A DNA stretch of 64,000 nt, from NCBI RefSeq assembly GCF_910596095.1, contig NC_056535.1:22398505-22462504 (forward strand), read 5' to 3'. Both the position numbers and the translations under genes were made by a program. Below are positions 22,350-57,193 of this stretch, one piece after another. How positions within the stretch are numbered: position 1 is the stretch's first letter; every line of letters starts with the position of its first letter. The notes under the pieces were generated by a model. The model saw nothing but the letters and a program-made list of their open reading frames with translations, was not told where the DNA came from and did no database searches. Origin of the DNA: Thunnus maccoyii (lineage: Eukaryota > Chordata > Actinopteri > Scombriformes > Scombridae).

Positions 22350-25300
22350 TCATAATGAGTGACAAGACTGAAGGGAGACTAATCTGTCCGCAACACACCA
22401 AGCTGTCAGCCGGGCATCCGGGTCACTGTCCCAACAATCTGTCAGTAGCTCCTGCAGCACAGATCCCTGAGAGTTTTAAACAGTCCGTCAGTACATTCAC
22501 CACAATAGATTCATATTTTCATGAGCAATCCAAAATATTTATTTTATTACTACATGGCCAACACAAACTGTATGTCCAAGTGAGAGGCATCATGTGGAAG
22601 AATACCTGTGGTAGCAGTTCCCAGTGTTCTGGTATGGAAGGTCTCTTTTCCATGTGAAACACGTACCAGGTGAGGCTCCCCAGGGTCATACTGGCCCCCA
22701 GCTCAGATTCATAAGGCATGAGATGCTGTGGAACAATATGGCCTGCAGATGGAGACATCTGTATGAATTTTAACATCCATTTAGCACTATCTCATAGATA
22801 AAGTGTATCCGAGCAGTGCACAGACATACAGCAGATTACGCACATCAACATCAAAGGAAAGTAAAAACAGAAATTGTGAAAATCTGACAGTATTGGCAGA
22901 TGTGATGACTGTTATTACGCCAAAGTGAATGAAGGCTTTAACATAACTCTTCTCCTTGCTCTGCCTAAGAGTGACTGAGCTTTTCTTTTGTGACAAGTTT
23001 TTTTCAACTTCAAGAGCACCTTAAGGTTCCCTGGTTTTGAAACTGATTGAGCACTTGGTCTCTGCAGTTATTCTAATGTGATGTTGGAAATTTTGCTTTT
23101 ATTAATCGTTATTATGCAACTATTGATGATATTGAAAAAGAAACAGTAATGGCAGAGTGGAAACAGTTGTATATAGTTTTAATTATCAATATCAGGTTCA
23201 AACGTTTACAATATAAGTGGTTAATGTGAACCTATATTGCTCCCTGTAAGCTACACAAGTTCAATCCAAATATCCCAGATCAGTGCATTAAAAGTGACGA
23301 AGATAGCGGGAAACTATAATTGTTCATGGGAATGTCCTGTTATCAAAGATTTTTTGGAGAAAGTGATATATATTTCCCACATTGAGAAGAAAAAGATGAT
23401 ATCGTTTTGGTATCTTCATGCCAAATACACAAAAAAGGCACTAAAGCCATCTCTCAACCAATGGCTGAAATTACTTTCAAGGTCGTTATTTATGGAAAAA
23501 CTAACATTTGCATTAAAGGGAAAATCCAAGGACGTTGAAAAGATGTGCACCATTTATGGACTTCCTGAAAAAAAAAACAAAAGTTGGGACTTAAGTTTTC
23601 CTCTTTTCCTGTCTGGTTCTGTTTCTGTTTTGTTGTTGTTATTTGTTTTGTTTCATTATTTTTTGTTTCTGTCTTATTTTATTGTCATGTTTTTTATTAT
23701 TGACATAACAGAATAAATATAATGGTAAAAGATAGATAGATTGTTATCATGCACCTGATTAAAGGCCCACATGTGGTTGGACTAGCTCATGGTCAAAGGC
23801 TACCCCATTATGTTATGTATAGGCCTAAGAAGAAGTTTACCTTCAAATAAATCAGAGCAGCGCATCCAAATCTCCCACAGCAGCAGTCCCAAAGCATAGA
23901 CGTCCCCTTGCAGACACCAGCCGCTGTGTAGGTTTACAGAGCCTTCCAGGATCTCAGGGGACATGTAGCACAATGTGCCTACCTGAGCGTGACCCTGCAG
24001 ACGGACAGAAATCTGAACTGTCATTCCGTATGTTTTCATTTAGAGATTTTAATCTTGCATTACTAAGTTGTATCTCCACACAGGTCTCACCACTGTGTTT
24101 CTTGTGCAGCTCTGCCGCCGCCGAGGTCCGGAACATGAACGTAGGATGGTGGAACAACCAAAATCACTCAGAGCACAGGTACCATCTGCTCTCATAAGCA
24201 CATTGAAACTGCTGAGGTCTCTGTGGGCCACAGGAGGTTTATGCACATCTGTAAGGAAAGACACATACAGAATAATTGTGAAAATATTCTGATTTGTGAA
24301 TTTATTTGTGGTTTGAATTCATAAATGCAGTGAATGTTACGGATCAAGAAAGACTCATATATTCATTCATTCACTTACATTTAGAGTATTGGCCTCCTAG
24401 TGGCTGTAAGGAGCTGCAGCCGCAACACTACAGTTCAAACACTGAACCAGAATAATTCAAATGTCTTCCGTCTGCAATACTGCTGAACTGTGAATGTTCC
24501 TTCTTGTGGGTGATTTTGAATCCCTGTAATATATCAGCTGTTTGTATGCAGCCTTATGCTTTTTTTGTTACAACTCACCTGAAAGAATACTCACCTTAAT
24601 GTGTTCAATTCTGGTAATAGTTCAAATTGGGCACATGTATACAGAGATAGCAGTGCTTTCTATGTAGGTAGGGTATAACATGGACAAGCACACACACACA
24701 CACATGCACACACACACACACACTGTGATATTCTGGCTGATACCATTGCTGTGAAGGTCAGAGTGGAGATAGGAAAGTCCCTGTGATAAAGACTGGCACA
24801 GCTTCAGTGACAACATCCAGCTGGTGGTGTGCTTGCACAAAAAGGAGTGGAGAGAACCCTGAAATCAAAGGGACACTAATTATTTATGTCCAATAACATT
24901 AAAGAGTTAGCTTTGGGTATACAATGATAGTGTGAGTGTGAGAGGATGTGGTAGACTAGAAAATGTATGGCATGCAACTCATTTCACTGTGCCAAAAGAA
25001 ATGCTAATTATCCTAAACAGAACGTTTGAATGGGAACTTTCTGCTCTATAGAGCTTACAGGACTACAAAGCACATACCTCAGACTCCTTTTCCTGGTCCT
25101 TCACCTACTCCCTTGAATAACTTTAGATATCTCAGAAAATGGAAAAATGCCCTATTATATTTCCTTCAACAAATGATTGCCACTCACATATTCAGCAAAT
25201 TCCAGGACTGTGAGCCAACTGTCTCCATATGGTTTCCTCCCAGTGCCCAGGAAGTGGACAATCCCAGCATGCTTCATCAATGGGAGTTCATAAACCTCCT

Positions 25301-28300
25301 TCTCTGTGGTAAATTGATGTTTCCATCTTGCAGGGATAACCTTCACGGCCACCATGGATCCCTTGTATTTCCCCTGCCAAACGGTGGCAAAATGCCCATT
25401 AGCCACAATCTGAAAGAGATAATAACATACAGGTACAAGTACAAGTTAACCGGATGGTAAAATAGATCATCTAACTGTATAATTTTCTGATACTTTGCTC
25501 ACTGTTGACCATAAAATATAAATTGATTTGACAGCTGTGCTTACCCGCTGTAGTTCAATGTTAGCAATGTCAATCTCTGAGGCTTTTGTTGTTTGGCAGG
25601 AACACAGTGGTGAGACATGGGAGTCATGAAGGGAGGCTTGTTGGCTCTCCTCTAAAATGACAGTAATGTAATGAAGATACACTAGTTCAAGGAAATCTGA
25701 CACTACCACTCCTTTTAATTTTGTGTTATTTTTAACTGTCTGGTTTTATTTGCTGCATTGCACTCCTGAAAAGTTTTAATCTGGGCATAAATTATTTGGT
25801 CACCCACTATTCATTTTAAACTATCCTAACTGAATATCCACAGAAAAGACACAGAAATATGATTGAAGAGTACTAAAGAGAGGACAGGAGGTAAAAGGGA
25901 GCACTAGAGATAAACACCAAGGCCAGTCCAGCAGAGAGAATGTTATTGTTTCAAGGTTAAACAATGATATCATGAGAACTGAATCTGAATTTAGGAAATG
26001 CGTTGTTGAAATGTTTTTTTCCCAAATCTTTGGGGAAGCAGAGAAGGGATGTGCTATAAATCAACAATATCTTTTTTCCTTCGTAAGGACAACAATTTTA
26101 TAGCATGTCTGGTCTGAATCTAGCTCTAAGACACTGCAGGGGCTGCGATATTAACTCTATCTTCCCAGGATGAGCAGTAACGTGGAAGCTGAGTTATCTA
26201 AATGTGAGGGATCTAGCAAACTCTTCTTCTGTGTGTTGATGATATCATAAAAATGTGATAATACAGTCCACCATTAAGGCTTTTAATTTATTCCAGTTAA
26301 CGCCTACTTGTACTGTATTCAGTAAGTAAATGGGACATACAGTATTTTCATCTATGAAAACAAAATGATTCCCTTTTATATCATGCTATTGCTCACTGAA
26401 ACAGGTTTAAGACATACTGCTACAATAACTGCAATCAGGACAAAGTGTCGATGTTGTCCACTGGAGTGGGCAGTCACATAACAAAAATTGAAAATGAAAC
26501 TTTTACCCAAGTGAAAGTAATTATCTTGAAAGAGGTTTCTCCATTTCACAGCAACGACCAGGAGTACGACAAAGATCAGGACTACCAAATGTCCAAACAG
26601 AATCACTGCAGTTGCCGTCTCTATGAAAAAAGAAACACATTTAATTTCTGTAGAATCTAATATGATTCATTAAGTGAATATCATGTTAAAAAATAATATA
26701 AAAACACACATGACAAGTTTAATCTTTTTAAGTTTAGGGTCAGATTTTCAAATGAAAGGAGAATAGAAAGAGAAAGAGAGGTTTGGATTTGGCTTGGGAG
26801 GAAACAAAATGTGTCTTTTGAAAGAATGATAACATTTTCTGCGATGAAAAGAAAATAAATCACTTATCATCATACCTACAGAAGCGAGTGGAGGCTCTTC
26901 CAGCTCTGGGGTCCAGGTGATGTTGCTATTGCAGAGGTCTGTGTGGCACACACACTTAATAACATGATTGCTGAAGCGTGTTTGTGGCCTGCAGGTTGCA
27001 TCCGGGCAAGACTTTTCAACGATATCACAAGCTGGAGCAGAAAAATTAATAACACAATAGACAATTAAAAAAACATGAGAATCCTACTCAACCTAGTAGG
27101 ATGTGTATATTACATAACATAGACATTACAGCAATTAACTTATTTAGCCAATAGCAGTCAGATATGCCCTGATGTTGGCTGGTTTTGAGGCTTAAATTAT
27201 TAAACGATCTGATAACATTTTAAGAGCAAAAATGTTTATGACTCCTGATAATGACACAAGAACAGAATCCACAACATCTGGTCTACTCCAGATGTTCTGG
27301 TCCGGATGTCTAATAAATTTTTAGGTCTCTTACCAAGAAGATCAACCTCTGGCTGGCTATTGTTGATAAGAAAATAGCCCACACAGCAGTAGGTGTTCTC
27401 GCAGAACTGCACCGAGCCGCTCACATTGCCAGCGGTTGTATATATGTTGTTTTGTGGGTTCTGTGGATTCACTTGGAATGCACACTGTCTCTTCTGAATC
27501 AAAGACTGGTTGGAGATACATAGAAGGATGCATTCTGGGAAGAGGAAGACAAACAGACAGCTGCTGTAGATGTTGTACATGTGGATTCATTGAGCAAAAA
27601 TGACCTTTTTCTCTCTGGTTTTAACAGGAGGCTTTGTTATCCAGGTTTTATGGTGACTCTTATACTCTATAGTGCTGATTGTTTATAATCTGGTGGACAA
27701 TACTGTCTAAATACCAGTTTAAAGTAAATATTTAAAGTACATTTTCTACCAATTATGCAAAGATTTAATGTTCTTTGTTCAAGGCAATATCATGAGAAGC
27801 AGATTTATTGGAGTCAATATCACTTTCATGATAATTATACTACATTTATTTACACAGTCAATGTACTAAAGTGAAACAATTAGACTTGCAGAATCTTTCA
27901 AAGTGTGACCACTTTAGCTCAGTCCAAAGTTTGACTGTAGATATATTATGATAAAAAATCAAGATGCCCAAATGTGCATCCTATCTTATCAGCCTCAATA
28001 TTTCTTGAAACACCTCTTAGTGCTCTAGTTTCCTGCTGTCACAGTGTTCCTGACTCTGAAATTACTTCAAAATTTATTTCAGTAAATTGCTGTTTCCCTC
28101 AAGTGTTCCGATGCTTGATGATGCAGATCCAATACAATCCACAAAACGTTTTTTTCCCTGAGAACAATTTATCAGCGCTATAGTTACAGGACATACGCTG
28201 GTAGCATACCCATCTCTTTCCTTACACATTTAGATCCTAGCCAATAACTGGCCTATGTATCATTAACTCTAGAAAGGTTGGTCGACATATTTAAGATGTC

Positions 28301-31150: not shown

Positions 31151-34100
31151 ATGGTAAACCAACTTAAATGACTTATTGGTCAGCCCGAACATGTATTACA
31201 CATGAATTCAAAAGTTTTACGTTAATTTTGTGCATATTTATTTTACCAGACGGGGATTTTAGGAATGCGCTTCCCCACAAAAGAGCTGGCTGATGTTTTC
31301 GCGGAGGACTCTGAAAACGATCGAACATTTTACGGTTTTTCTGACGGTGAAATCAGCGATCACAAGGTGCTTTTTTTGGCTTCAATACGAAGGAAATATA
31401 CATATTTAATTGTAATAGACGTTTTCTGTTGTTGTTTTTGTTGTTGGTTTATCGCCTCACAGAGATATGAATACACTCACTGAGCAGTTTATTAGGAACA
31501 CCTGTGCAATCTAATGCAATCCAATAAAACAGTTCTGCCATGAATTCTACTTTTATATTATTATATTATACAAAGTGTTCCTAATATTTTGCCCCTCTCA
31601 TGTATGTTAATAGAGTGGACAAAATATTAGGAACACTCTTCAATATAATGCAATCCAGTACACCACCACTATGACCTACATAATAAACATAAAGTAGAGT
31701 TCTCACCTTTCTGACAGTGTCAACAGAAACTGAAAATGTTCAAGCTTTGTAAAAGTAGAATTTATGGCATTACCCTGTAGTGATTTCATCGGTCATTCTT
31801 TTTCACTTCAACGCAGCTGGCAGTTTATGTTCCTAGAGAGCTCAACAGATTACTTAGACTGTGAAAACTTTGTGAAAGTTGTGTCACCAGCCAAACGAGA
31901 AATAATCCAATTTCTTAATCTCCTCATGTCCATCAGAATTCAAATTTGGAAGATGAAGATGGAGCCCAGCTTTCTCTTTCTCCCAAGAAACAGAAAGCCA
32001 CATCTAAACCATCTGCTGCTGCCCGCCCCTTCAGACTCAGGGTGGCTCTCCGCTCCACTTTCACTGCCCAGCAGTCCACTGATGATGAGGATGCAGAGGG
32101 TGAAGAAAAGAGTACCGAGAAGAGAGAGGTGAAGAGGGCAGGAAAGACCAGTCAGGCAAAGAAGAGGAGACGTGTTAAGTTTGAAGATGAAGAGTCAGCA
32201 GTGGCTCGGCCGTCTCCTTCTAAGGAGCATGGATCAGATTCAGCAGAAGATGTGTCGGACTCTTTTCTGGCCAAGAGAGAACAGAACATCAAAGCCAATA
32301 AAGCAATGGTAACCAAGAAACACAGAACTACATACAGTATATGGTATAGTACTATTTGGAGGCCAGCAGATTGATGTCACCAACATGGTGTATATAGCTG
32401 TGGTTCATAATGTCCAGTTATCCCAAAGGTTTATTGGGAAACCACAGGGTCCCTTGTGAAATAAGAATGTTTAATTTCACTGTTCATTTGATACATTTTC
32501 CACACAGAGAGATCTATTATTTTACTAACTTCTCCCTTTTGTTTACAGTAGAAATGGACAGGTCTTCTCAAATGGGACAAAACAAATCAGAATGAGGGTT
32601 TTTGGCCTAAAGCAGTGGCTCTCAGACTTGGGGTGTTGGATCCTTTAAGGAGTCACAAGATCATTTGGGGGGGCTTCAAATAGCTTGTTCGGTCTGATCA
32701 ACAGTCCAAAACCTAAAGAGATATTCCATTGATTATAATCCTTTTTATTTTATTTTATAACAGTTGGCTCAGCTGATGGCAGACCTGCAGAAGATGCCAG
32801 GAGCTGCAGGTTTTCTGAAGAAACAAGGTGGTAAACAGCCAAAAGAGAGAAGTACTGTGAGTAGAGGATGATGAAAAATCTTTCACAAATCACCAGCAGT
32901 TTTGTCCCAAAGTCAGTTGTTAATATTTAACTGGATGGAAATTAAAATTCCCCATTTGCTTAAGTCAAAAGTAAACAAGAGGTGAATCAGAATATTTATG
33001 TTAATCTTTCTTCTCTGTCAGATCACCCCAATTATGACTACTTCAAATTTGAGTTCCAGCTCTGATTAATAGACAAATGTACTGAGGTGATTTTATCCAA
33101 CCTCATCTGCAGCATCCACCACGCTCTGGTGCAGCTGGAGGGGAGTCCAGGAAGAACCCAGAGCGAGCGTCCCGCAGACAGACCCGCTCTATGGGGGGAA
33201 GTGACAATCCTTCAGCCCTGCAGGAGGAGAAACTGGAGCTCAGTTTAGAGGAGGAGCTGCTGGAGGTTCAGTTCTTCCATTTATCAATGACTGTCTTTAA
33301 AACTTTGGACTACTTCCTATTCTAAAAAAAATGTTGAACAGAATTGGGAGCCCCTACTCTCCTAAAAGGTGTTAACTTAAGTGCAATATAATTATTTTAA
33401 TTTTTTGTCAGATCTTGACAGTTTGTTTTGCATGTAAATTAATGTTTTTTATTTTTAAAGTAGATCTCAGGCCAGAAAATCAAATAATTTCATAATGGCA
33501 TTATTGTGTAGTGCAACACATTGTGCAAAAATGTTTTTCAAAGAACTACATAACAAGCTGTATGATTGAAGAACTAAAACTGGGTCTTTGTTAATCATAT
33601 GAATGTTTTATCTTCTGTTTTACTCAACCATTTGTAATATGTTCCGTATACTGTCAAGATGAATGTATCAGGCTTTGTATATGTGTAAGTTAACTGAACA
33701 TATTTTATTAAATCTTATCAGTGTCTTAAGTCAGACTGTTAAAGTGAAAAAGATCATTGTTGTTTTGTGTTCTAGGTACGCCGGGCCCCGCAGCGCCGTG
33801 GAGCCCCACGACCTCATCAGTCCAAACCTCATATTGTCCGACCTGTCGAAGACATCACAGAGGATGAGATTCAGCTGATTGCAGACAACATGACTGATAA
33901 AGTCTACGACAGAGTCATAGTTAGTTCTGGGAATGATAGACTTTATTTCAATATCATGTTATTTTGGAACCAAATCAGTTTGCACAGAGACCACTAACAA
34001 AATCACTGTGACAAGATCTAGTTCAGAACACTGAGAAACCGCTGTGGTCATCGAGTCACCACCAGGTGGCAGTCTCTCCTGTACTGAAGTCTAACAAATG

Positions 34101-35463
34101 TACTCAACCTCTGTATAACATCTGTTGATGTTTCTTTTTTTGTTTTCAGGGCTCTACATGTCACCAGTGCCGACAGAAAACTGTCGACACTAAGACGTGC
34201 TGCCGCAGTGAGGACTGTCGTGGGATTCAGGGTCAGTTCTGTGGGCCATGCCTGAGGAACAGATACGGAGAGGATGTCAGGAAGGCGTTGCTTGATCCGG
34301 TCAGACACCAGCACACAGGCTATACCTGCACAGATGCACATAAGATGAATTTTGCACACATCATTTCTGTATTTTCTGTCATGGAGTGTTTAGGTTTGCA
34401 GGGGGGTCAATTTAAATGTGGCAGAGTCGATATGATAGCAGCTCTGTGAGGCTGTATTTGAAGGATAATTACGGTTTATTTCAACCTTATATATTTCCCA
34501 TAAATGTAGCCATTTGGGCTCTATGCACCATGCTAACTTTGCACTCACCAGCTCCATTATAGAGATTTGGGGAAACAAGGGACTTGTGCAGAAAAAAAAA
34601 TTAAAAAGTCATTTCACTTCTTACTCTCCATCTTAAATTTCAGTCTTGTGTAACAACTCTGGGCTTTTTCACCTTTTTACTGAATAGTTTTGCCAGTGGA
34701 GACACATATGTGAAACAGAGAGTTCAGCTAGCTTAACAGTCATGGTCCTAGCAACTCATCATTAAGTGTCAAGACAAAAGGTGACTAATAATGATAACAT
34801 CAGTACTTTTCTAAAGACAGAACAGGATTTGTTTCTCTGTGTTGTTAATCATTTGCACCTTAAAGTAAGCAACACTGCAGGAAAAAATATAAAAGTAGTT
34901 GCACTTGTAAAGTTAAATCCTGTTCGCCTTTTAAATCCTTTTCCTTATGTACTTACACTTCTGTCTTTCTCCAGTCAGTTTAGTGTTTAATCATGTATCT
35001 CCTCAGGAGTGGCGGTGCCCTCCCTGTCGAGGCATTTGCAACTGCAGCTTCTGCCGCCAGCGTGATGGCCGCTGCCCAACTGGTATCCTGTTCCCCCTGG
35101 CTCAGTACCACGGTTTCTCGGACGTCCACTCTTACCTCAGCAGGTGGGGTACTACATCAGAAGATTTTTTTTTTTTTTTTTTTACAATAATTAAGTTTTT
35201 CTTTCAAGAGTCTAATTTATTGAATACTACATATGAACCTCAATATAATGAGAGGATACTTACCAACTTAACAAGTACCAGATTGCACCACCATCTCAGT
35301 AAAGTGTCCTAAAAAGTAACTGTTAAATACCTGCAAATTATCAGGAAATTAGTGTAAAATAAAATTAAGGGACCTGTAAAGTAAAGCTCTGGAACTGACA
35401 CATTTCTCTCCTTACAGCCTCCAAAAAAAACTGAAGAGTGAGGATGACGATGGAGAGATGTGA
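31151..35463 (+). CDS. cdca7-like: CDCA7-family zinc-finger protein (third ohnolog, beside sp1)
   Basis: CDCA7 proteins recruit the HELLS remodeller to chromatin and support DNA methylation upkeep. Exons: 31151-31153, 31250-31366, 31937-32308, 32764-32856, 33113-33265, 33776-33919, 34150-34299, 35007-35143, 35418-35463, all in frame, 404 aa. The C-terminal zf-4CXXC_R1 domain (about residues 297-388) begins [11 protein letters not shown] and holds [34 protein letters not shown] and a TGILF end. All paired cysteines look present. The N-terminal [12 protein letters not shown] recalls the CDCA7L ADIF/RRIF motifs. A middle [23 protein letters not shown] block matches family coiled-coil segments, and [11 protein letters not shown] precedes the domain. 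The first exon codes only ATG. The gene is convergent with sp1, as I recall CDCA7 is with SP3 and CDCA7L with SP4. Confidence 0.93.
31482..31785. mobile_element. Palindromic MITE in intron 2 of the CDCA7-like gene
   Basis: A perfect 18-base inverted repeat, AGTGTTCCTAATATTTTG and CAAAATATTAGGAACACT, meets near 31574-31637. Outer arms also pair: GCCATGAATTCTACTTTTA near 31540 and the complement of TAAAAGTAGAATTTATGGC near 31750. TTAGGAACAC plus TAATGCAATCCA also recur as direct repeats. A foldback element, class unknown. Confidence 0.7.
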
Positions 35464-35577
35464 TTCCAAGACACCAGAGGGAGCAATTGTTCCAATTGTA
35501 TTGTAGTTTTGTGTTGAAAGTTTTGAGTCTTGCTGTTTTAGTCTGAGTGACACTTACACATGCTGTGATTTTAAACA

Positions 35578-35583
35578 AATAAA
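35578..35583 (+). terminator. AATAAA poly(A) signal of the CDCA7-like gene
   Basis: A perfect hexamer about 115 nt after the stop codon (35461-35463), giving a very short 3' UTR. Confidence 0.75.
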
Positions 35584-35599
35584 GCAGTTTCCGACCAAC

Positions 35600-37397
35600 T
35601 TATTGTCATTTGTTAGATTGGGACATAAATTTGCAAAGAAATGAGACAAAAGTATATTCATAATTTTAATCCAGCTGTTGGCATTTGCAGTAGTAGTATA
35701 CACACAATATAAAATCCCTTATTTAAAACGGGGCAGAAGAAATAAGAGCACTTGTTGTCCAATGAACTTAGTCTGTAGAGATTCAAAGGAGAGTTTTAAA
35801 CAAATTTTTGACATAAAATTTACAATTGTTTCTCAAACTAAGCAGATCTGAAGCAAAGAAAACAATTTTAACAATGATGAGAAGTATATCATCTCAGAGA
35901 AACCTTGACCCTTAATATATTTTGCAACTTATTTATTTGGACAACAAAGGGATGTGCACCGAGGTTTGCCTTTAAGCTGGATATTTTCCAGTTAGAACTT
36001 ACACATATGCATTACAAGTGTAAAAAGTATTAGAAAGTTCATGGACCAAAGACAGTTTCCTAGTTTTGCTTATAAACTTGAGTATGAACCTTTGGTTTGA
36101 GCTTACATATTTATGCTGTCTGGACATTATTACAAGATACTTCACTCTGACCAGATATGACTAAACAATAATTTTCCACAAAATAAACTGATGTGACTGC
36201 AAGGCAAAGTCTCAGATAATAAGTATACCACAGAAAGAAAAGTACTGGGAAGATCAGGACTGTATAGAATACATTATTCTATGACAGAAAGGCTTGCACA
36301 TTTGATCTACATATATATAAAAGTTAACATAAGATTAAGATTGATTGTGCATGAGAGGTTCATACAACTGAAAGGCAATCTCTTGCAATCATGTAAGATG
36401 ATCCCGCCTATGCTAAGAATTTCTGTAGCCTTTACATTACCAAATATATATATATACATAAAAAAATCTAAATATTTTTTGCTATGATAAACATATCAAA
36501 GCATGATGGCTTGGATGTGTGTACCTACACAAGAGGTTAAACAGTTATTCTCAGGATTTCAGTGCTCTTATACACCTACATCCTCACACTGATTAGTGCT
36601 TCTGGCTCCAACCAGGTCGTGACCTAATATAGTCCAGCCCTCTTCTAAACTCCTGAAACGCTTAACATGTTATTCCTATGATAGTGGGATTGTTAGTTGG
36701 TGAAAACACTCGAGTTCTCCCAAAACTGCAAACAGAACTTTGAGAGCCAAATGTTTGCTGCCAGATATTATGATGATAGTTTTCCATTTTAGTTTTAGGG
36801 GGGAGTTTAGCATTATGGGAGGATGAGGGCCAGTTAACCTGAGGGGGCACGCATGATATAACAGCCCAGGTTGAGAGGGCAAGAACCACCTGAGGTGAAG
36901 AGGGGCAGAAGTAGCGAAGCTCACAGCCTTGAAAACAAGGGTGAGAGTGTGACTTAGTAGTGTCATCTCTTTACTAAAGAAGGTTGTAGAGAGAATATTA
37001 CTAACTAACAATTCAATATCAGGTGAGGGGGGTCTTGGTGTTTTATTGCAATCCCACTATCAAGTAAGATTGGGTCTTTGTGTGGGACAAATGTTAGTGT
37101 ATTGCCATTTCCACTTGAGAGAAATAAGATTTCATGATGATTTCTTTAGTCTAACATTTTAATCCAACTCAACCACCTCTGATCTTTAAATGCCACAGGA
37201 ATCTAAAGACACCTGGAAAGATGGAAATCAGCACTCCTGCCTCAGTTCTCAATAGTGTCTGTTGTGTTGCATTGTGACCACTTCTCCTGCCTGAAGCCTT
37301 CAAGAGGTTCTGTGTCTGCAGTCAGACGTGCCCTTTTTAACCCCAAACGTCCGAATACAACGTCCACCAAGGCCATCTTCCTGCTCCTGCTCTGTTC
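35600..37397 (-). other. sp1: sp1 3' UTR and intergenic gap
   Basis: The sp1 stop is at 37398-37400. Minus-strand AATAAA signals at 37042-37047 and 35932-35937 are candidate ends. With the longer one the two convergent genes end about 350 bp apart. The interval is A+T-rich. I saw no named repeat or coding exon in it. Confidence 0.45.
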
Positions 37398-40300
37398 TTA
37401 GTAGCTGTTGCCATTCATCTGTTGAAGTCCCACCTGCATCATGTTGATCCCACTGCTGGCTAATCGAGCTATGCTCTCTGCAGATAAGGTTTCCATGGTG
37501 ACAATGGTGTGCTGGTCACTGGCCGACACTGCTCCGGTGCCGGCTTCTGTTCCTGCTGCAGGGGAAGCAGCATCAGTCGAAACTGTGGTGCTGCCAGTGG
37601 CGACGGCCGTTGTTTTCTTGTTCAGGTGGGTTTTGATGTGCTTGGAGAGGTGGTCGCTGCGCATGAAGCGTTTTGGACACTCTGTGCAAACAAACCTCTT
37701 CTCACCTAAAAAAAGGGATAGAAATTAAAGTCAGTTAATGCTGTAGAAAAAAAACGAGTTTACTAGACTCTTGGTAAGACAAGCAGATGTTGATGTATGT
37801 ACAGTCTTGTCCTTTACTCTCCAAATCAGAGACCACTTCAGAAATATGTCTCAGGAGTTGATTGTGTCATAATGTTTTGTAGTTGCTTTTGACTAAATGT
37901 CACGAGTCAAATCCTAAACGTCACCTGTGTGTGTCCTCTTATGGCGCTGAAGCTCATCTGAACGGGTGAATCGTTTGCCACAAAAAGACCAGCCGCAGAC
38001 AAAGGGCCGTTCTCCTGTGTGCCAGCGGAGATGGGCCCTCAGGTGGGATGTCTTGCCGTAGATCTTCCCACATCCGGAGATATGACAAATGTGCTGTTTC
38101 TTTTTAGTTGGGTCACTGTTTGATGTACAAAAAATAATACAAATAACAGTAAAATTACAGTAATATCAGTAAATAATACAGATATTTTACACAGAAAAAA
38201 TTGTAAGAAGCTGTGATAAAAATCACCCTCTAAATAAGCACAATATAGGCATACAGCTGGTTCAGTGACATACCGTCCTTCTCCATCCTTGCAGAAGGGG
38301 CAGGTACAGGCTTCTCTCCGGTTACGTCGTCCTTGGGTGGGAGGGCTTATATCCTCATCGTAAATGGCTGTGCTATCATCCAAACTTTCCCCGCCTGTCT
38401 GCAATGCCTGCTCTCCTGTAGTGATGGAAGAGAAAATACTCAAGTCTGAGATAATGTCTTTACTCAACATTGCTTGTCAAATAAACATACTAAACCCTGG
38501 GGGTTCACAAAAGTTTCACTAGCAGTGTAAGTACCGTGAGATGTACTATTTGAAATGAATAATAATCATCAAGGTACAAGCACATATACTGTACATTTAA
38601 AGGCTGGATAGCCTGAGCCCTACAGGCTTAAACCTCTATACTAAAGTGAATTTTGGTTAAATGTCATCACCAACAAAGCTTACTACATAGCCGATTTCAT
38701 AAGAATAACAGAGCAAATTACACCCAATGATGATGCAATGATTCCTCAAAAACTTAGTATTTGATAAAATGTAAACTGGCAAGGATATACAAATTACTGG
38801 GAGGGATTGCCAGTGACACAGCTGAAGAGGGGTTTAGACATGATAAAGATTCCTATGTGATGGGAGGGGTCAAGTTACACCCCTTCTCTGACACAGACAT
38901 CGTGGCCAGCCCGTACTACTGTTATGCGACCATCGTCTGAAGAAGGAAGTATCACCAAGAAATGAAAAAATTTCAAACACATATGCAAACACATGCAGTG
39001 AAGTAAAGAGCTCAAGGAAACTCTGGGCCAGTTGAACTGGTTAAACCAGTATAGTGCACTTCACACACAAAAGAACAAGAGATCAAATCCAGAGATACGA
39101 GATGCTTTGTGTTTCAGAGAAAACCTAATTGAAAAAAAAAAAGAACTCCAACACACCAAGTAAACCTAATTTTGTCAACAAATTTACTTAACAACTGTCA
39201 GTTGTATAGTAAACAAATACTGTGAACTACACTATTTGAACTGTAGTTTTTTTTTATCTCTCATCTAACTAAACACAATCAAAAGTTAGGGTTTAAGCCC
39301 CTCTCGTTTTGATCAAACACAAAATAAATTAATGTACAGAACATTTTTAAAAAAGTAATGGTAAGAAAGTCAAATAACTTTGACAATAATAACAAGTTCA
39401 ATTTATAAATTCTCATACTGTCTTGGATGAGAATTGCATCATTTAGTAAAAATAAGCTCCTCCAGAGTCACTGGCAGCTCAAAATATTTCCAACATACAA
39501 TTTGTTGATTTAATGTTTTGTATGTTAATATAGTTCACCTTCAAAACATATGCAAACTGATCAAACCATTATGTATACTTTTTAAACTGCACATCAATAA
39601 TTCCTGGAAAGCAGGCTACTGACTGACCTCCTGTGCTGGCGATGGTGATGGGAAGACTCTGCATCTGCAGCCCTGAGCCACCGAGTGAGTTGAGATTTAT
39701 GGTTTGGAAGCCTGGGATCTGCACGGTGTTGACAGCTGCAGCAGGTCCCTGAGTCTGGCCCAGTTGAGGGAGAGACTGCACTGGGGCCAGTGTGATCTGT
39801 GTTCCTGGACTCTGGATCTGAATGGTCTGCCAGCTCACCTGGCCATTGGGCCCAACAGTGCGCAGCAGGAGGGGGCCTGTGTTTGGCATAATTTGAAGAT
39901 TTTGAAGCCCTTCCTGGCTGAGAGTTGGAGCAGCAAATACCTGACCGCCTGCGGTCGTGACAGCACCGGCCTGTATGGTCTGGAGGGGTGTTCCACCTTG
40001 AATGATTTGCTGAGGCTGGATAAGGATCTGCTGCGGCTGCTGTCCGTCTCTATTGTCTGGCTGTATTGGGACGCCCAGAGAAGATGCTGTGTTCTGCTGT
40101 AATGTCCCCGTCACCGCTACATTACTGTTCTGCGTTTGGGTCATTCCATAAGAAGATGTCGTCTGCGTGGTGACAGTGGACGCACTTGTCATGTACGTTG
40201 CCCCACTGTTGGAAGACACTGGCTGCTGCGATTGCTGTATGAGCTGGTTTCCCCCTGTATCCCCTCCACCATTGGCATCTCCCCCTGTACCACCTGCTCC

Positions 40301-42770
40301 AGTACTGACAGGCAACAAAGTGATGTTTCCATTTAGCGACACAGGCATATTTGCCAGGAACTGGGGCTGGTTTTGTAACACGCTATTGCCTAAGCTAATA
40401 TTTTGTATGGGGATTGCTCCCTGAATGAGGCTGGGCATCGTTATGATGTTTCCTGCTGCACCAGCTCTGTTGGCTGCGGTTAAGATCTGCTGGCCATTGG
40501 GAGAAGACACTATCTGAAACTGCTGTCCTGGTCCTGCTGCAGGAACACCAGAATCTTGCTGAGCCTGCGCAAACTGCAGTGGCTGGCCATCTACTGTCTG
40601 AAACTGAGGAATAACCTGGTACTGAATGTTGGGCATTACACCTGATAGGGTGGTGAGCAGCTGTTGACTCTGCAGTGATGGAGCCTGAGCTACTACATAT
40701 TGCTGCGCCTGCTGCTGCTGCTGTCCCTGAGTGCTTACAGCAGCTGCTGATGGTGACTGCACCTGTCTGCCCTTGCCTGTGTCTCCTACTGCCATCACCC
40801 CTGAGGAGTCGGTGGTGATGGTGCTGGTGCCTGAGGACGCTTGAACACTGAGAGGGATAACCTGCCAGCCGTTGGCACTGGAGGTGAAAACACCTTGATT
40901 CATGTCCAGCTGTTGCTGCTGGTTTTGTTGTTGTTGGTCAGCAGGTGAATCATTTTCTCCTGGGGTGTCAATTCGACTGCATGTGGCCGCCAACAAGGCG
41001 AGAGGAGATGGCTGCTGTGAGTCCTGGAAAGAGAATAAATTAAAAAAAAGAGAAGGAATTTAGAACATAAAAATACATCTCACTATCCAACATACATGTT
41101 GATGCTGCAGCTGTGATAAAATATATCAATGGCTGTCAAAATGTCTACTGATAATTTAACCCATTTTACATGTACTGAGGCAGTTGAAATAACAAAGGAA
41201 ATAATAACATCAATATAGTGATTATAATAATAAATGAAATAAGAAACCTTTAAAAAGTGCTTTACAATAAAACAGTTGAGTAAAACAGAATTAGGATAAA
41301 TAAAGCAGGATAATGGCACAAGTAATTTAAAAAAAAAAGAAGATAAAAATCAAGCTACACAGTAACAGTAATATAGCCAGAAGTAAAAGTGGACCTTACG
41401 AAACAAGGAGGAACTGAGAGGGCCAAAAAAAATAAAAAATAAAATCAACATTTCAACTTTAATAAAAAATGTCCAATTCATGTAATAACACATAATTGCA
41501 CTCATTTAAACACTTATATAGTCTGGCTGGCTTTGCAAATGCCAATTCATAACATTAAAGCCATTTTTGTCACGCAAGTCTCTTTCCAGCAGTTCACAGG
41601 GGCTGGAGTGAGAAGTCCAGGGGGAGAAGCTGGGTGGGAGAATATGGGAGGGACCACTTTTTTTTTTCCAGAGCAGCGGCGGGCTCGGCCTCCCCTCCCC
41701 CCAAACCCACCCATCTCCCTCCCACACTTTTATTTTGCCCTATAAACTGACACACTCCTCTAGCCACCCCCTCCAAGGCCAGCCAAATGGGCCGAGCGAA
41801 ATGCACATGAGAGTGCAGGGGTTTGACGGGAACACCCCGTGTGGGCGAATTTTACCTGCCCATTTCCCACCCCGGTGACATGTGCTCCAGAGAGAAAATC
41901 AACAACACGCACACGTCTCGACACAGATGGGTTACAGAATCAAATCAAAACAAAACAAGAAATACATATCGGGTTCAGTGAGGGAGGGAGTGGATTTATG
42001 TTTCCCAGCGGACAATCACCAGATGTGGCATTAGTCAGACTGTGTTCTGGTTAACCTACTTGTGAATTCGTGTTTCGCTTTTGACTGAAGCCTCCACCGC
42101 TCTCCACAGCGGCCATTTCACCCTGCTGCTGATCTGCGGAAGAAGAGTTTTACAAAGATCACTTCTCTTTAACTTTCAAGCAGCAGACACATCAAACTGA
42201 GTTATGGTCTCATTAAACCAAAAGGGGGGGAATGGCGAAACAAAACAAACAAAGTATTCACATGATCGACGACACAAAATGACAAAAACTACGAAATGTG
42301 TCGTTAACGTGAAGCAATTAAAGACAAGAAATGTAAGGAAATCCAACCACAAGTGCCTGAAGGGCCAGCTAGCTTATTAGCTAAGCTAACATGAACTCAC
42401 ACAAGTTGTCACGTAGAAGTGCTACTGAGAGCGAAATATGTTTATCTGCACTACTAAGTGTAACTAGTTAGCTAGCTTATATGTGTCTAATAAAGTTAAA
42501 TTGTTTTATAGGCAGGTAGTGCCGGTTAAAAACAGAAGTTTCGTTGCTGTTAACCAGTTAGTTGGCTAAATGTTGTTAGCTAACTTAAATACCGACAATT
42601 AGCAGTTAAGTAGTTGGCCACTTTTAAACTGCTTGAGACGCCACAAAACACAAAAAATACAACAGTGAATACGCTTAAAGTAACGTACTTCAGTTCAACT
42701 TATACCTGATAACTGAATGCTTCGTTCACAACACGCTAGTTAACACAAAAAAAGTTCACTTACTGCTCAT
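37398..42770 (-). CDS. sp1: Transcription factor Sp1
   Basis: Sp1 binds GC boxes and activates many promoters in the nucleus. Exons: 42764-42770, 42060-42133, 39628-41023, 38274-38415, 37925-38115, 37398-37705, all in frame, 705 aa (human about 785). The large exon encodes the [13 protein letters not shown] motif, Gln-rich and Ser/Thr-rich activation regions ([45 protein letters not shown]). A Buttonhead box CTCPFC follows at about 529-534. Three C2H2 fingers (about residues 550-632) carry the Sp1 DNA-contact signatures [16 protein letters not shown] and RSDHLSKH. The C-terminal [14 protein letters not shown] matches Sp1 domain D. The start is MSNQQQGEM. The first exon holds only seven coding bases. 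Adjacent genes fit the SP1 locus. SP3 or SP4 identity is unlikely given the neighbours. Confidence 0.95.
41590..41890. other. G+C-rich patch in sp1 intron 2
   Basis: This stretch is clearly more G+C-rich than its surroundings. It contains CCCTCCCCCCAAACCCACCC (near 41692), CCACCCCGGTGACATGTG (near 41869) and several CCCACC or GGGAGG words. No conserved reading frame is evident. It might be an internal regulatory element or alternative promoter. Confidence 0.3.
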
Positions 42771-51963: not shown

Positions 51964-54900
51964 TTTCCATGGACACAGGTTTGCAAATAAACTGTGAAAA
52001 CCACCATCAGATGCATATCAACAGATTCCTCTTCTATTCTGAAATGAGTTCTCTGTTTCAGCTTGTGCGTTAAATGGTGGAAAAATTACACCTGGAGTTG
52101 GGTGAGTAGCAACTGTAAAGCGGAAGATATTAACAATGAAACAACACAAAAAGCAAGAAGAATGTTTTATCACTGATTTAGTAAATATATGTTTATATAT
52201 ACTGTATATGAATCCATGTTGCTTTAATCATCATACTGACAGGGCTGTAATAGCATTGAGGACACAGATTTTCTTCTGTAGTTTTACATATATATATATA
52301 TGTATATATATATACATATAAGTGAGCAATAAACAGTATTTGATGTTACTCAAATTTTAGTCAGATGTAAATGCATATAAACTGCACCTCCCATCATGCA
52401 ATTCCCATCATAAAATTCATGCCAAGTCTCTGGATTGATATCTTAAGGTCCTGCATAGTGACGCTGTTTCTATGAAAATGATTCAGTAGAGTGTTTATTT
52501 ATCACTTTATTGCAGATATGTGTGTGTGAAACTTTAATATGCAAACTCATTGTATGTTTTGAAAGCATATTTGAAATCATCTGACTTTCTGCATTTCTAT
52601 AATCAATAGTAAAGAAATCTCAAAGAAATGATGATTAAGGAGACTGTTATTTGTCTTCTTTTTCTCTCTCTGTGCTGACCTTGAAGCCTCGCAAGGCAAC
52701 CTTCCACCAAACGACAACACAGCAGACTCACCAGGTCAGTTACCAACCTCTTTCCAAGCTCGCAATGAAAGTATAATAGAAAGGGTTGTTCTGGTGTCAG
52801 ATTATTGTCGCAGGAATGTTTTCCTCAGAAAAGAATCTTAAATTACCTGGTTTCACTTCTAAAGTTTTGTAAATGGAAAGCAAAAACAAAGTGAGCTTAT
52901 TCAGCTGACTAATCTTCACTTACACGCTGGAGCGATCGCATTATTAACATGAATATGATTCTAATTTGTAGGTCGTATGCATTTTAACACTTAAAATATA
53001 TTAATACCTTTGCCCTTGTTTGATAGTACCCCTCGTCAGGGACTATGTCTGCCGACACTGAACTTGGGCCACAGCATGGCCTCCAGCTGTCTCTCCTCCT
53101 CCACCTGTAAAACCACGTCAAGGTGAGGCACTTTATTGTTCTGGAGGTTTCTTTTGGCTCTCGAATGACCTGCTCGACAAGATGCAACTTTCCAAATCCA
53201 AGTTTCTCTTTTTCTTGGCTCGTTTGAATGTGTTCTATTTTAATTCTATATAGTAGTATTTCATCCTGATATCCTTCTTATCATTGGTCACATTTTAATG
53301 TATTGGCTCCATGTTTAATTATTTGGTAAAAGACATTTTAACTCTGTTTTATTAAGTGCTCTACATGCCAGAATAAAACATTTTCCCTTCCCTTTCTCTC
53401 ACATGCATGTTAGTGTATCTGAGGTGCTGCAGATGTGTTCGGAGGATGCAGAGGAGACTCTGTATGAGTTGGGTTTTGGCTGTGATGAGCCACAGGTCAC
53501 TGTGCGCATTCCTCCTCGATTCTTCACCTTCCCCTCTCAGGCTCAGGGCATAAACTTCCGCCTTTTCCTGGACTCACAGCTACGGCGGATACGAGAGGAG
53601 GATCCTAGCCTGTCTCTTGCTAGTAAGAACATTGATTTATTAAATTACTCTGCTGTAGTTTGTTTGATATGTGATAGGGTGAAATAATTCTGGGATCACC
53701 ATTTGTATTGTACTTGTATTATTTTACATTTTATTCTTTCTACAGGTCGTTTCAGACAAGTTCAAGTACTCACAGCAATGGCCAACGCTTTCTACTCCCT
53801 GTACTCCCATGTGTCTCGCACTCCTCTCCAGAAACTGGCCACACCAGAATTTACCTTCTCCATGTCTCCCGTGGAGAAGATCGAACGCTTCAGGAGCTGC
53901 ATTCGCAGTGAGCCACGCTCTCCTGTGGAGAGGCTGAAGGACACCGTCTCCAAGATGTGCCTCTACACAGGGTCTCCTCGAGGATCAGACTCCACCTCGC
54001 CACAGCCCTCACCCAGGAAAAGGTCTAGCCTTCCTGATGTTGTGGGTATAGTCCTGGATAAGGCCAAGACTAGGCCCACCAAGAAACTGGATTTGGGGGA
54101 ATATAATCGGAGTCATTCAGCTGTGGATGTGAGGCTGGTTATGGATGTTGATAAATTCTGTAACGTTGAGCAAGACGAGCAAATACAGCAGACCGTGGCG
54201 GACACAGACAATCTTCAAAATGGAAATAAAATCTGTCATGAGAAGATGCAGGACAGTAAACAAACAGATAATGTTGATGCTGATAAAAAAATTATCAAAC
54301 CAACAGACTTTGACAGCATGACTCACAGTATAAGAGCATCTCTAGCGTCATCCATATCAGGAGAAACCGTGATAGAAGCAGATCATCAGTTTCTTTCATG
54401 TCAGACTGAGCTGGACTCATGTTTGACTCAAAGTGACACAAGGACAGATGATCTAAAACCAGTTACCAAGGTTACATTTGATCTAATCTGTCCGCCGATA
54501 GTGGAGAGTGTACACCAGGCACCATTCTCTCAACACACGCAAAGTGTGAAAAGAAACACTTTATCTCATCTCTCCAATCGGACAGAACGCATGGATAGAT
54601 CATGTCTTGTATCACAGAGACACCACATACAAAACAAGACTCAAACATCTGTGTCTGAGCCTGACAAGGACTCACACAGAGCTGATGTTGCCTCTTCAGG
54701 GGAAGCCACACAGGCGGATGTATCCAGATCACTTCATGTCCTCGACCCTGATGGTAGCTACACCCATTACAGCATCACTGTGACTGGGTGGGAAGGTGAT
54801 GAAGTCTCTTCCTGTTCCTTGAACACACCCGATTCCAGTCACACTTCGACTGAGCCACCTGTTGAGACTTGTGAAGAGCCACTTAGCGAGGACAAAAGCC

Positions 54901-57193
54901 GGTACCTCAATCCACTGACTCATCAGGCCCTGGGGCACAACTCCAATAACCTACAACAGGTTAACTCCTTTGAGCTGGAGGAGGTGTGGTATTCTAAAAA
55001 TAGTACTGCACATGTACAATATGTACAGACTTTGGGGCTGAATGATGTTGGAAAAAAATATTTTAGTTTTTAGCAATAATACATTTCGATATTTAAGAGG
55101 AAAGTTGCACAGTTTTATCAGATACTGTAAATATGCAGCATTTAAAGCATGTTGCTCCATTTGGAAAGGTTTAATCACACTGATTTAACATGAAATTTGT
55201 ATTCAATATTCACCCATCATTCCAGGTTAAAGTCTGTGATCACCATGATATTAATTATGAAATTGGCGAAAAGATCCAGAAAGAAAAAGGAAGCTTCATA
55301 TTAATATTCTTCAGTTTAAATTAGGGCTGAACGATTTTGAAAACATATCTAATTGCGATTATTTTGACTGATGCAATGATTATGGCATGATTTTTGCGGG
55401 GATATGTACCAAATAAAGATGATTTCTTAAGTTTGTAGAATATGATGTGTAGGCCAGGACATCTCTGCAGCAGGACAATATTTAATTTAAAATGGTATTT
55501 TGACAGACATTTTGCCTTTTACAAACATTGCGCCTCCTGTGATTTGAAAATTGCAGTAGGCCATATTGTGATTTAGATAAAAATTTCAATTAATTGTTGA
55601 GCCCTGGTAGACTTTTGCCTCACTGAATGGCACTCAGTTTTGGCTATGCACTCTCACGTCATATGACTCCCCATTTTTGTTTATTTCATACTAGTCAGTT
55701 CTCAGAATGATTTTGATTGGTCATTTGTCTCACAGGCAACATACGCTTGCAAAACAACAAACTGTTACTAGATAAGGCTAAACAACAGTATGTGTCAAAT
55801 GGATCTGACTGTTTGTCTTTAAGATAAGAAATGAAAAATGAGCTACTGATAACACAGAGCCACTGATATCCTATCAGTAAGTGGGTTTACATAGTGGACC
55901 ATGATGGGCCTAGTTTAGATTATTACATAGCATCCAAGTGTACATTGTAATTTTGATGATGAAACAGTATCTCATTCAGCCCTAATGTCACATAACATTT
56001 TTGTGTTTTCTAATTATAGATGAGTCAAAACAGACCTACAGTGTATTCTGCAATATACACTTACTACTATTTATCTCAATAGGTGCATAGTGCAGGAGAG
56101 GAAGATTTTGGACAATCAGAAACTACGAGAATAACAACCTCACTGCTGGCCACAAAACATCAATACAAAGGTACAGTATATATATAATTTTATTTGTGTG
56201 TGATTGACATTTTTTGCATGAAAACATTAGTTCACAGGCAGTAGATACAACTGTTGCTGGAAACCTGCAGTCATGTTTTACAGGAACATGACCTCTCAAA
56301 TTCAAAATAGCTGTTTGTATTATATTGTAATATACAGCAGGGCTGTAACTAATTATTTTTTTAATTTTCATTATCGATTAATCTGTAGACCATTTCCTTA
56401 TTAATTGTTTACTCAGACATCTGAGTAAACAATTAATAAGGAAAGATAAGAAAGATAATGATGTAAAACTGAGAAAACAAGCAAATCCTCACACTGGGAG
56501 CTGCAGCTGAGGCGTTTTGGACATTTTTGCTTAAAATATAGCTTAAATGATTAATCAATTATCAAAAATAGTTGCCGCTTAATTTTCTGTCAACTGACCA
56601 ATCTATTAATGGACTAGCAGCACTAATATACAGTTTGTGTGGTCACCAAATAGCTGATCCAGTTCACAACAAATAAGCATTCACCCTGTTCAAACGGTCA
56701 TGGATGAGTGAAGAAACGGGTGTTGTCAGTCAGTCACTACTGTAAACAGCTACTGTAACCAGTGCTGCACTTCTCAGCATTAAGGATGCTAGCAGAAAGG
56801 CACAAATATGTGTGAGCACAAAATTTCTTGCTGAACCTTTTTAGATTTAGGCTCAGTGTCTTGTATTGAGGTCAGAGAAAGTGTGTCAGGAACTTTACAG
56901 CTAAGACTCTGACTCTGACAGACTGGTGTATACAGATCATTGTGCAATTGTGCAGGTGTTATTTGTCACAAGGAACATGTATACGACACACGTTCTGTAT
57001 GTATATTCTGTACATATATTCAGGTCAGACTGAAGCTGCATCTGTGCAGTGGTACACAGTACATGGAGTTGTTGACTGACTGTATTTGTGACCTTATCCA
57101 GGTGAAGTGGCCCGGGGTGACAGCATTCAGTCAGACAGCAGCGGCTACGCGGATGAAGAAGTCAGCCCTGCGACCGACAGACATAACAGATGA
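48013..57193 (+). CDS. tespa1: TESPA1 (KRAP/ITPRID family IP3-receptor-interacting protein)
   Basis: Mammalian TESPA1 binds IP3 receptors and supports calcium and ERK signalling in thymocytes. Exons: 48013-48157, 48524-48566, 49542-49582, 50279-50332, 52062-52101, 52687-52734, 53027-53122, 53414-53622, 53746-54983, 56083-56170, 57102-57193, all in frame, 697 aa. An in-frame TGA precedes the ATG. N-terminal RRRAWINSSRQW, KIENWLQGCG and FDDDLSLGA, then SEDAEETLYELGFG, RIPPRFFTFPSQAQGINFRL and RFRQVQVLTAMANAFYSLYS match the family domain. SPVERLKDTVSKMCLYT follows. The long exon codes an unstructured acidic region. The end DSIQSDSSGYADE is the conserved KRAP tail. The gene lies beside sp1 and fits the 12q13 copy, not ITPRID1 or ITPRID2, though these are close relatives. 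Confidence 0.88.
49730..50220. mobile_element. hAT-like AAGTAC-rich MITE, inverted relative of the 29589 copy
   Basis: AAAAATACTCCATTACAAGT and AAAAGTCCAGCATTTAAAAT occur early, and GAGTAAATGTACTCAGTTAC with TTCCACTACTAC at the end. These are complements of the words in the 29589-30361 element. It lies in the tespa1 intron before exon 50279-50332. Confidence 0.65.
50339..50432. repeat. Long CA repeat directly after a tespa1 donor site
   Basis: (CA) about 46 units with two CG interruptions. It starts at the donor sequence itself (GTAAGTACAC...) of tespa1 exon 50279-50332. Confidence 0.95.
50643..51260. mobile_element. TTAA-flanked non-autonomous DNA transposon
   Basis: TTAA at 50639-50642 and 51261-51264. 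The termini AGGCATACTATGCAGGAT and, reversed, AGGTAAACTATGCAGTAT are inverted. It is 618 bp, with no transposase. It has the same TTAA/AGG logic as the element in pcbp2, but a different family. It lies in a tespa1 intron. Confidence 0.75.
51490..51730 (+). mobile_element. LINE 3' end fragment
   Basis: Contains GCAAGAGGTTTCTTCCTGTT, CTAGACCTGCTCTATGTGAA and ATGATTTGGCGCTATATAAA, then a TTGAATT-type repeat tail. This is a very common fish non-LTR retrotransposon 3' region. 5'-truncated, plus orientation, in the same tespa1 intron. Confidence 0.75.
51890..51961. repeat. CA repeat about 100 bases upstream of a tespa1 exon
   Basis: (CA)n with GCAT interruptions. It lies upstream of the 40-nt exon 52062-52101, in the same intron that begins with the longer CA repeat at 50339. 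Confidence 0.9.
55322..55608. mobile_element. hAT-type MITE (second family)
   Basis: Begins TAGGGCTGAACGATTTTGAA and ends TTAATTGTTGAGCCCTGG, so the termini are inverted. The GCTGAACGATT...GTTGAGCCCT layout is a common teleost MITE. I saw no clear duplication. In the tespa1 intron 54984-56082. Confidence 0.65.
56338..56625. mobile_element. hAT-type MITE with perfect 8-bp target duplication
   Basis: Flanked by ATATACAG on both sides (56330-56337 and 56626-56633). Begins CAGGGCTGTAACTAATTA and ends ACTAGCAGCACTA. It includes a second internal inverted repeat (ATTAATTGTTTACTCAGA near 56400 and its complement just after). Same broad family as the amhr2 3' UTR copy. In the last tespa1 intron. Confidence 0.8.

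What the first reader, a model, noticed from the sequence alone, without database searches (positions are those of the whole stretch)
31151..42770. A CDCA7-family gene paired tail to tail with sp1: a third ohnolog of the CDCA7/CDCA7L-SP pairing
The sequence shows a complete 404-codon CDCA7-like gene between amhr2 and sp1, convergent with sp1. From established maps, CDCA7 lies near SP3 (human 2q31) and CDCA7L near SP4 (7p15), while the human SP1-AMHR2 interval has no such gene. The simplest inference is that the ancestral SP-CDCA7 pair was kept in all HOX-linked paralogons and the SP1-side CDCA7 copy was lost in mammals but kept in this fish. Its function could differ from CDCA7.
Basis: partly seen in the sequence, partly recalled or inferred. 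Interest (0 to 1): 0.72.

Follow-up and report, generated by a model that had tools for sequence, protein, structure and literature searches.

The report
Third CDCA7-type gene beside sp1
This fish carries a complete third gene of the CDCA7 family, whose known members help cells copy DNA methylation, and its position tail to tail with sp1 matches the family's two other genes, so it is most likely an ancient genome-duplication copy that humans lack, although a third family member had already been reported in frogs and some fishes.

Summary
A complete gene of 9 exons and 404 codons (window 31151-35463, +), with all eight introns GT-AG, encodes a class I zf-4CXXC_R1 protein. It lies between amhr2 (-) and sp1 (-), tail to tail with sp1.

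Each is tail to tail with an SP gene: C3 with sp1, C11 with an sp3-type, C15 with an sp4-type gene. On C3 and C11 a MAP3K gene lies upstream in the same orientation. In the domain region the C11 gene is 83% identical to a solved CDCA7 chain, the window gene 69%. Shared introns rule out a retrocopy. Synteny therefore supports a 2R ohnolog. The sequence tree agrees but is weak: pairing with fish cdca7 is not rejected (AU p 0.08-0.42).

Corrections: three of four SP1-4 segments keep the pair (no match on the sp2 contig). A third paralog, CDCA7e, is already published for frogs and some fishes. An ayu paper lists a cdca7l among genes of the amhr2/sp1 regions. The human SP3-CDCA7/SP4-CDCA7L block was published in 2010.

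None of the papers I opened states that the third paralog is the SP1-side ohnolog. Function (hemimethylated-CpG sensor that recruits HELLS) is inferred from conserved residues.

The parts
31151..31153 (+). cdca7-like exon 1, coding part (start codon only)
   Evidence: GT donor follows ATG
31250..31366 (+). exon 2: N-terminal block with FYGF (degenerate LEDGF-binding motif)
31937..32308 (+). exon 3: basic region and first half of the HELLS-binding-type helix, ending NKAM
32764..32856 (+). exon 4: second half of the helix ([13 protein letters not shown])
33113..33265 (+). exon 5: NPER..TRS block
33776..33919 (+). exon 6: [11 protein letters not shown] lead-in to the domain
34150..34299 (+). exon 7: zf-4CXXC_R1 first half (R302, Q303, G322, R332)
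35007..35143 (+). exon 8: zf-4CXXC_R1 second half (S358)
35418..35463 (+). exon 9: C-terminal end and stop codon
35578..35583 (+). AATAAA, likely polyadenylation signal of the cdca7-like gene (inferred)
37399..41059 (-). sp1, 3' part: zinc-finger exons and the large glutamine-rich exon; convergent partner (5' end of sp1 not modelled)
22353..27586 (-). amhr2 exons (kinase and ectodomain), divergent upstream neighbour; name from my reading

Best explanation
The gene is the SP1-side ohnolog of the CDCA7 family. One ancestral MAP3K-CDCA7-SP block was copied in the two early vertebrate genome duplications. The copies beside SP3 (CDCA7) and SP4 (CDCA7L) are found in human and this fish; the copy beside SP1 survives here and is probably the published fish CDCA7e; the copy beside SP2 was not found here. 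[quoted passage not shown] Gene structure and synteny in this genome are shown here; 2R origin is inferred from synteny; biochemical function is inferred from homologs; identity with CDCA7e is inferred by elimination.
For: Three zf-4CXXC_R1 loci in the whole genome at E <= 0.001, on C3, C11 and C15. Each lies on + with an SP gene on - downstream: gap about 1.9 kb on C3, 40 kb on C11, 5 kb on C15. C11 carries map3k20 upstream and three SP genes, the SP3/SP5/SP9 pattern that PMC3087555 reports for HOXD. C15 carries itgb8 (7p15.3 in PMC2235844) and a second SP gene. C3 carries map3k12 upstream and a second SP gene at 22478278. Four introns match in position and phase in the three paralogs. Domain-region identity: C11-8tlk chain 110/133, window-C11 93/133, window-C15 75/126. 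Informative columns: 6 join the window gene with C15 against CDCA7, 2 join it with C11, 1 joins it with the two solved chains. The best trees place the window gene outside both clades. The 11 cysteines and the positions of R274, Q275, G294, R304 and S330 are kept (roles from PMC11343034 section 10).
Against: The tree is weak. The AU test does not reject window gene + C11 as sisters: p 0.42 with five tool-derived rows, 0.075 and 0.137 when recalled human letters are added. Bootstrap for the CDCA7 clade is 51 without the recalled row. No frog, gar, shark or lamprey sequence could be fetched, so timing and rooting rest on synteny. HOX linkage was not tested. On C3 other genes (pcbp2-, prr13-, amhr2-type) lie between map3k12 and the window gene, so that block is not tight. 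The X. laevis CDCA7e change of C339 to serine is not seen here (C367 is kept), though it is not a defining trait. The strict LEDGF motif is absent. No expression data.
Confidence: 0.8

Rival explanations
1. Fish-lineage duplicate of cdca7 (teleost 3R or later) that moved next to sp1.
For: The window gene is closer to C11 cdca7 (69.9%) than to C15 (59.5%). AU does not reject the pairing (p 0.42; 0.075; 0.137).
Against: A 3R copy should lie in the 3R partner of the sp3 segment; a second sp3-type gene is on C16, which I take for that partner, and C16 has no family match. The window gene lies in the sp1 segment in the same order and orientation as the other two pairs. C11 is nearer to the solved CDCA7 chains than to the window gene.
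Confidence: 0.1
2. Derived copy of cdca7l.
For: Ayu annotators labelled a family gene of the amhr2/sp1 regions cdca7l (PMC8389408). N-terminal block with F-x-G-F shared with C15. Six domain columns shared with C15 against CDCA7.
Against: Window-C15 identity is the low one, 59.5%. With recalled human CDCA7L the clade C15+CDCA7L has bootstrap 96 and 100 without the window gene; nesting has AU p 0.105 on the domain, not rejected, and 0.0076 with N-terminal blocks. The shared columns may be ancestral.
Confidence: 0.05
3. Retrocopy or decaying pseudogene.
For: None found.
Against: Eight GT-AG introns, four of them shared with both paralogs; open frame; the functional residues examined are kept.
Confidence: 0.01
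4. True SP1-side ohnolog, but with a changed job, for example without LEDGF tethering or restricted to oocyte and early embryo as proposed for Xenopus CDCA7e. (A variant of the best explanation, not exclusive of it.)
For: Strict LEDGF motif absent, FYGF core kept. CDCA7e is the only family protein detected in Xenopus eggs (PMC10538959).
Against: No expression or binding data here; frog and fish genes not shown to be orthologs.
Confidence: 0.35

Closest known systems
CDCA7e (third paralog of Xenopus-type frogs and some fishes; PMC10538959, PMC11343034)
   Same: Third family member beside CDCA7 and CDCA7L; class I domain; the paper's figure legend marks residues that set CDCA7L and CDCA7e apart from CDCA7, and the window gene shares 6 columns with C15 against CDCA7.
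   Different: C339 equivalent kept here, serine in X. laevis CDCA7e. Orthology not tested; I saw no sequence of CDCA7e.
CDCA7 (SP3 side; C11 in this genome; human 2q31)
   Same: Domain, helix, intron positions, MAP3K upstream, convergent SP gene.
   Different: About 69-70% domain-region identity; six columns are as in C15 instead.
CDCA7L (SP4 side; C15 in this genome; human 7p15)
   Same: Domain, four intron positions, convergent SP gene, N-terminal block with F.GF.
   Different: 59.5% domain-region identity in this genome; separate clade in the best trees.
Human SP3-CDCA7 / SP4-CDCA7L / ZPK-SP1-SP7 paralogous blocks (PMC3009532, passages seen)
   Same: Same blocks and gene order.
   Different: The passage names no CDCA7 at the SP1 locus and argues for complementary gene loss at SP1 and SP4; the fish SP1 locus has one.

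Membership tests
CDCA7 family (class I zf-4CXXC_R1) | zf-4CXXC_R1 domain | tested here: met
   Pfam PF10497 E 2.9e-39, full model 1-99
CDCA7 family (class I zf-4CXXC_R1) | 11 cysteines spaced CXXCX10CX4CX7CXXCX19CXXCX3CXCXXC | tested here: met
   Exact match, residues 298-360 (pattern)
CDCA7 family (class I zf-4CXXC_R1) | Three ICF residues R274, G294, R304 | tested here: met
   R302, G322, R332
CDCA7 family (class I zf-4CXXC_R1) | HELLS-binding helix | tested here: inconclusive
   Helix-like [16 protein letters not shown] conserved in C11 and C15; I assigned it as the HELLS-binding helix without a structure or binding test
CDCA7 family (class I zf-4CXXC_R1) | LEDGF-binding motif [E/D]XEXFXGF (frequent, not defining) | tested here: not met
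   Only NDRTFYGF
CDCA7e | Third lineage apart from CDCA7 and CDCA7L | tested here: inconclusive
   Best tree (5, 6 and 5 rows); alternatives not all rejected
CDCA7e | Orthology with Xenopus CDCA7e | not testable with these tools
   No frog sequence or map on hand
CDCA7 (SP3 side) | Groups with solved CDCA7 chains and C11 | tested here: inconclusive
   Not in best tree; window gene + C11 has AU p 0.42, 0.075, 0.137; window gene + solved chains has AU p 0.021 and 0.0165 but 0.15 for the equivalent split
CDCA7L (SP4 side) | Groups with C15 and human CDCA7L | tested here: inconclusive
   Not in best tree; nesting AU p 0.105 on the domain alone and 0.0076 with N-terminal blocks; human CDCA7L letters were recalled
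2R ohnolog of the HOX-linked SP segments | Same gene order beside paralogous neighbours | tested here: met
   MAP3K-CDCA7-SP on C3 and C11, CDCA7-SP on C15; on C3 other genes lie between
2R ohnolog of the HOX-linked SP segments | HOX cluster on the same chromosome | not tested
   Search for the Hox9 family did not complete (last); linkage of human SP1-4 to HOX is from PMC2235844

The most novel reading that the evidence does not exclude
The maternal-type CDCA7e of frogs and fishes is the SP1-side ohnolog of the original HOX-linked CDCA7-SP pair. It was kept for maintaining methylation in eggs and early embryos, and its loss in mammals shifted that work to CDCA7 and CDCA7L; its presence also undoes the published gene-loss argument for the order in which the SP loci duplicated.
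Probability: 0.45. Interest if true: 0.55.

Novelty: new member of a known kind. Interest (0 to 1): 0.42.

Why it matters
It gives the third, already reported, CDCA7 paralog an address and a likely origin, and shows that a convergent CDCA7-SP pair persisted in three of four duplicated segments. It adds another informative gene family to the question whether the SP1, SP3 or SP4 segment split first: a 2010 paper argued from gene content of the human SP1 and SP4 loci, and a CDCA7 gene at the fish SP1 locus changes that content. It also names a fish gene for testing whether egg and embryo methylation upkeep uses its own HELLS activator.

Tried and rejected
Retrocopy or pseudogene: rejected by shared introns and an intact frame.

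Scan of genome contigs with exon 7 gave one locus, L025 (Planctomyces MAG, 27 residues, 52%). Its frame holds a stop inside the match and lacks the flanking CHQC; taken as chance. Scan of viral contigs: 25 stretches matched a pattern, none encodes a relative. So no further vertebrate sequences were obtained.

PDB search with the C15 N-terminal piece found nothing, as did the amhr2 ectodomain piece. PDB search with the C11 SP fingers gave 106 sequences, best 60 shown, nearly all other C2H2 proteins, and could not name the gene. The names sp3, sp4, sp2 and so on rest on neighbours plus recalled finger sequences; no call names them. The PDB tables do not print the organism: I take 8tlk for human and 8tle for mouse.

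Rfam: no match in the window at gathering scores. An alignment A1 was made and not used. Structure prediction was not run: the spliced protein is not a contiguous translation, and solved homologs at 69% identity made it of little use.

Papers: searches. The search for CDCA7 with SP3, synteny and HOX gave 0 papers; CDCA7 with ohnolog gave 1, the ayu paper. I opened eight papers. eLife PMC10538959: section 6 and passages. Sci Adv PMC11343034: abstract, outline, sections 9, 10, 11 and passages. PMC8389408: section 11 and a passage. PMC3009532, PMC3087555, PMC2235844, PMC3655950, PMC9358014: passages only. Figures were not seen, so which species in the ayu figure carry cdca7l, and in which panel (amhr2a or amhr2bY region), is unknown to me.
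Full report
What was checked. The window lies at C3:22398505-22462504 of an unnamed 782-Mb genome, a ray-finned fish by gene content (my inference). Between exons of amhr2 (-) and sp1 (-) there is a gene of nine coding exons at 31151-35463 (+). All eight introns are GT-AG and the product has 404 residues. The first exon codes for the start methionine alone. The Pfam domain zf-4CXXC_R1 is matched over its full length, and the best solved relatives are CDCA7 domains, 8tlk and 8tle.

Copies in the genome. A family search of the whole genome gave six exon matches at E <= 0.001 (18 of 18 candidates scored), at three loci: C3 (window), C11:18.25 Mb and C15:19.12 Mb. I fetched 90 kb around each of the other two. 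tblastn with the window protein found helix and domain exons in both, the C11 helix only weakly (E 0.11). In all three places the CDCA7-type gene is on + and an SP gene follows on -. The gap is about 1.9 kb on C3, 40 kb on C11, and 5 kb on C15 (last C15 exon not located).

Which SP genes. A genome search with two sp1 fingers gave 12 matches at E <= 1e-15, with 150 of 1755 candidates scored, so a lower bound. C11 bears three SP genes, which fits the SP3/SP5/SP9 triplet that PMC3087555 describes beside HOXD. Upstream of the C11 gene lies map3k20 on + (31-residue piece, E 7.8e-12). C15 bears two SP genes and itgb8 (E 1.1e-22), which fits human 7p with SP4, SP8 and ITGB8. C3 bears sp1, a second SP gene about 42 kb on, and map3k12 on + left of the window (E 9.9e-53); pcbp2-, prr13- and amhr2-type genes (my readings) lie between map3k12 and the window gene. 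The names sp3, sp4, sp2, sp7, sp8 and sp9 agree with finger sequences that I recall; no call names them. PMC3009532 (passages) had already noted for human that RAPGEF4-CDCA7-SP9 beside SP3 mirrors RAPGEF5-CDCA7L-SP8 beside SP4, and that ZAK-SP3-SP9 mirrors ZPK-SP1-SP7. The fish C3 locus supplies the CDCA7 gene that the human SP1 block lacks.

Missing fourth pair. An SP2-type gene lies on C2 and a second sp3-type gene on C16. Neither contig has a zf-4CXXC_R1 match. So three of four SP1-4 segments keep the pair here, and the presumed 3R copy of cdca7 is absent. A more lenient search for remnants did not complete.

Sequence relations. In the domain region (134 residues of the window protein) the C11 gene is 82.7% identical to chain 8tlk (110 of 133). 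The window gene is 69.9% identical to C11 (93 of 133), 68.7% to 8tlk (92 of 134) and 59.5% to C15 (75 of 126). Of nine informative columns, six put the window gene with C15 against CDCA7, two with C11, and one with the two solved chains. With five rows from tool results the best tree has the CDCA7 clade apart from the window gene, at bootstrap 51 only, and AU rejects none of three topologies (p 0.70, 0.42, 0.15). Window gene + C11 has AU p 0.075, nesting in CDCA7L 0.105, and window gene + solved CDCA7 chains 0.021. With recalled N-terminal blocks as well and the 8tle row dropped (5 rows, 178 columns), the values are 88 and 100; nesting in CDCA7L p 0.0076, window gene + C11 p 0.137, window gene + CDCA7 chain p 0.0165. 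The tree favours a third lineage but does not prove it; the synteny carries the conclusion.

Gene structure. Four introns match in position and phase in all three genes: after NK(A/E)M, before GS(T/S)C, after the LL(D/N)P codon, and a phase-2 intron near the end of the domain (for C15 only its donor was located). The C11 and C15 N-terminal exons were not fully modelled.

How it most likely works. The 11-cysteine pattern is exact. R274, Q275, G294, R304 and S330 of human CDCA7 correspond to R302, Q303, G322, R332 and S358 (R, G and R printed, Q and S read from the gapless alignment there). In the cryo-EM structure R274 touches the 5-methyl group, Q275 would clash with a second methyl, and R304 and S330 touch the backbone (PMC11343034 section 10). 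A helix-like stretch [21 protein letters not shown] resembles those of C11 and C15. I take it for the HELLS-binding helix of that paper (section 11), which gives no letters in the text I saw. So the likely action is to sense hemimethylated CpG on nucleosomes, bring and activate HELLS, and help UHRF1-DNMT1. Shown here: the residues. Inferred: binding, partner, pathway. The strict LEDGF motif is absent and only the FYGF core is left.

What is already known. PMC10538959 section 6 states that CDCA7 and CDCA7L occur throughout jawed vertebrates, that frogs such as Xenopus and fishes such as Astyanax and Takifugu have a third paralog CDCA7e, and that lamprey has one gene. It says CDCA7e is the only family protein detected in Xenopus eggs. 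The gene in the window is most simply the fish CDCA7e, by elimination. PMC8389408 lists sp1 and cdca7l among genes of the syntenic regions around ayu amhr2, whose autosomal block reaches to sp7, so a family gene near sp1 in other fishes was probably seen but labelled cdca7l. The figure was not held, and the same legend covers a second region. PMC2235844 gives the SP tree (((12,2)7)17) and distances to HOX clusters. None of the eight papers I opened names the SP1-side origin in what I saw of them, and searches brought no other; subscription papers are not in the library.

Verdict. The ohnolog reading is probably right (about 0.8), with the corrections above. It is a new member of a known kind; its interest is moderate, chiefly for the history of the SP-HOX segments and for the open question of where CDCA7e came from.

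Noticed in passing
L016-L019 (C15:19075-19114 kb): Upstream of cdca7l a tandem array of secreted C-type-lectin-like genes (ORFs with GLAL...SPSGD..VKLQ.G.CP and MTWADAE.HCVSE), at least eight copies by eye, mixed with retroelement-like ORFs. Family name is my reading.
   Followed up: no
window 31480-31770: Intron 2 of the cdca7-like gene holds short inverted repeats (arms of 20-21 bases, 95% complementary, pairs I2 and I4), possibly a MITE.
   Followed up: no
window 63435-63845: ORF that reads like a Tc1-type transposase fragment, with a weak helix-turn-helix match (HTH_23 22.2 bits, below its cut-off of 24.6).
   Followed up: no
C16:11546390-11548928 (L026): Second sp3-type gene, presumably the teleost 3R copy, without a cdca7 partner.
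   Followed up: partly
window 3355-3849: Low-complexity stretch with poly-Ser/poly-Thr type ORFs on the minus strand, just past a KH-domain (pcbp2-type) exon at 4451-4621; not interpreted.
   Followed up: no
window 53319-55073: TESPA1-like gene (KRAP_IP3R_bind domain; name is my reading) lies between sp1 and a dsRNA-binding (tarbp2-type) gene.
   Followed up: no
PMC3009532: Its suggestion that the SP1 and SP4 neighbourhoods are sisters with complementary gene loss used human gene content, without a CDCA7 at SP1; this fish locus weakens it.
   Followed up: partly
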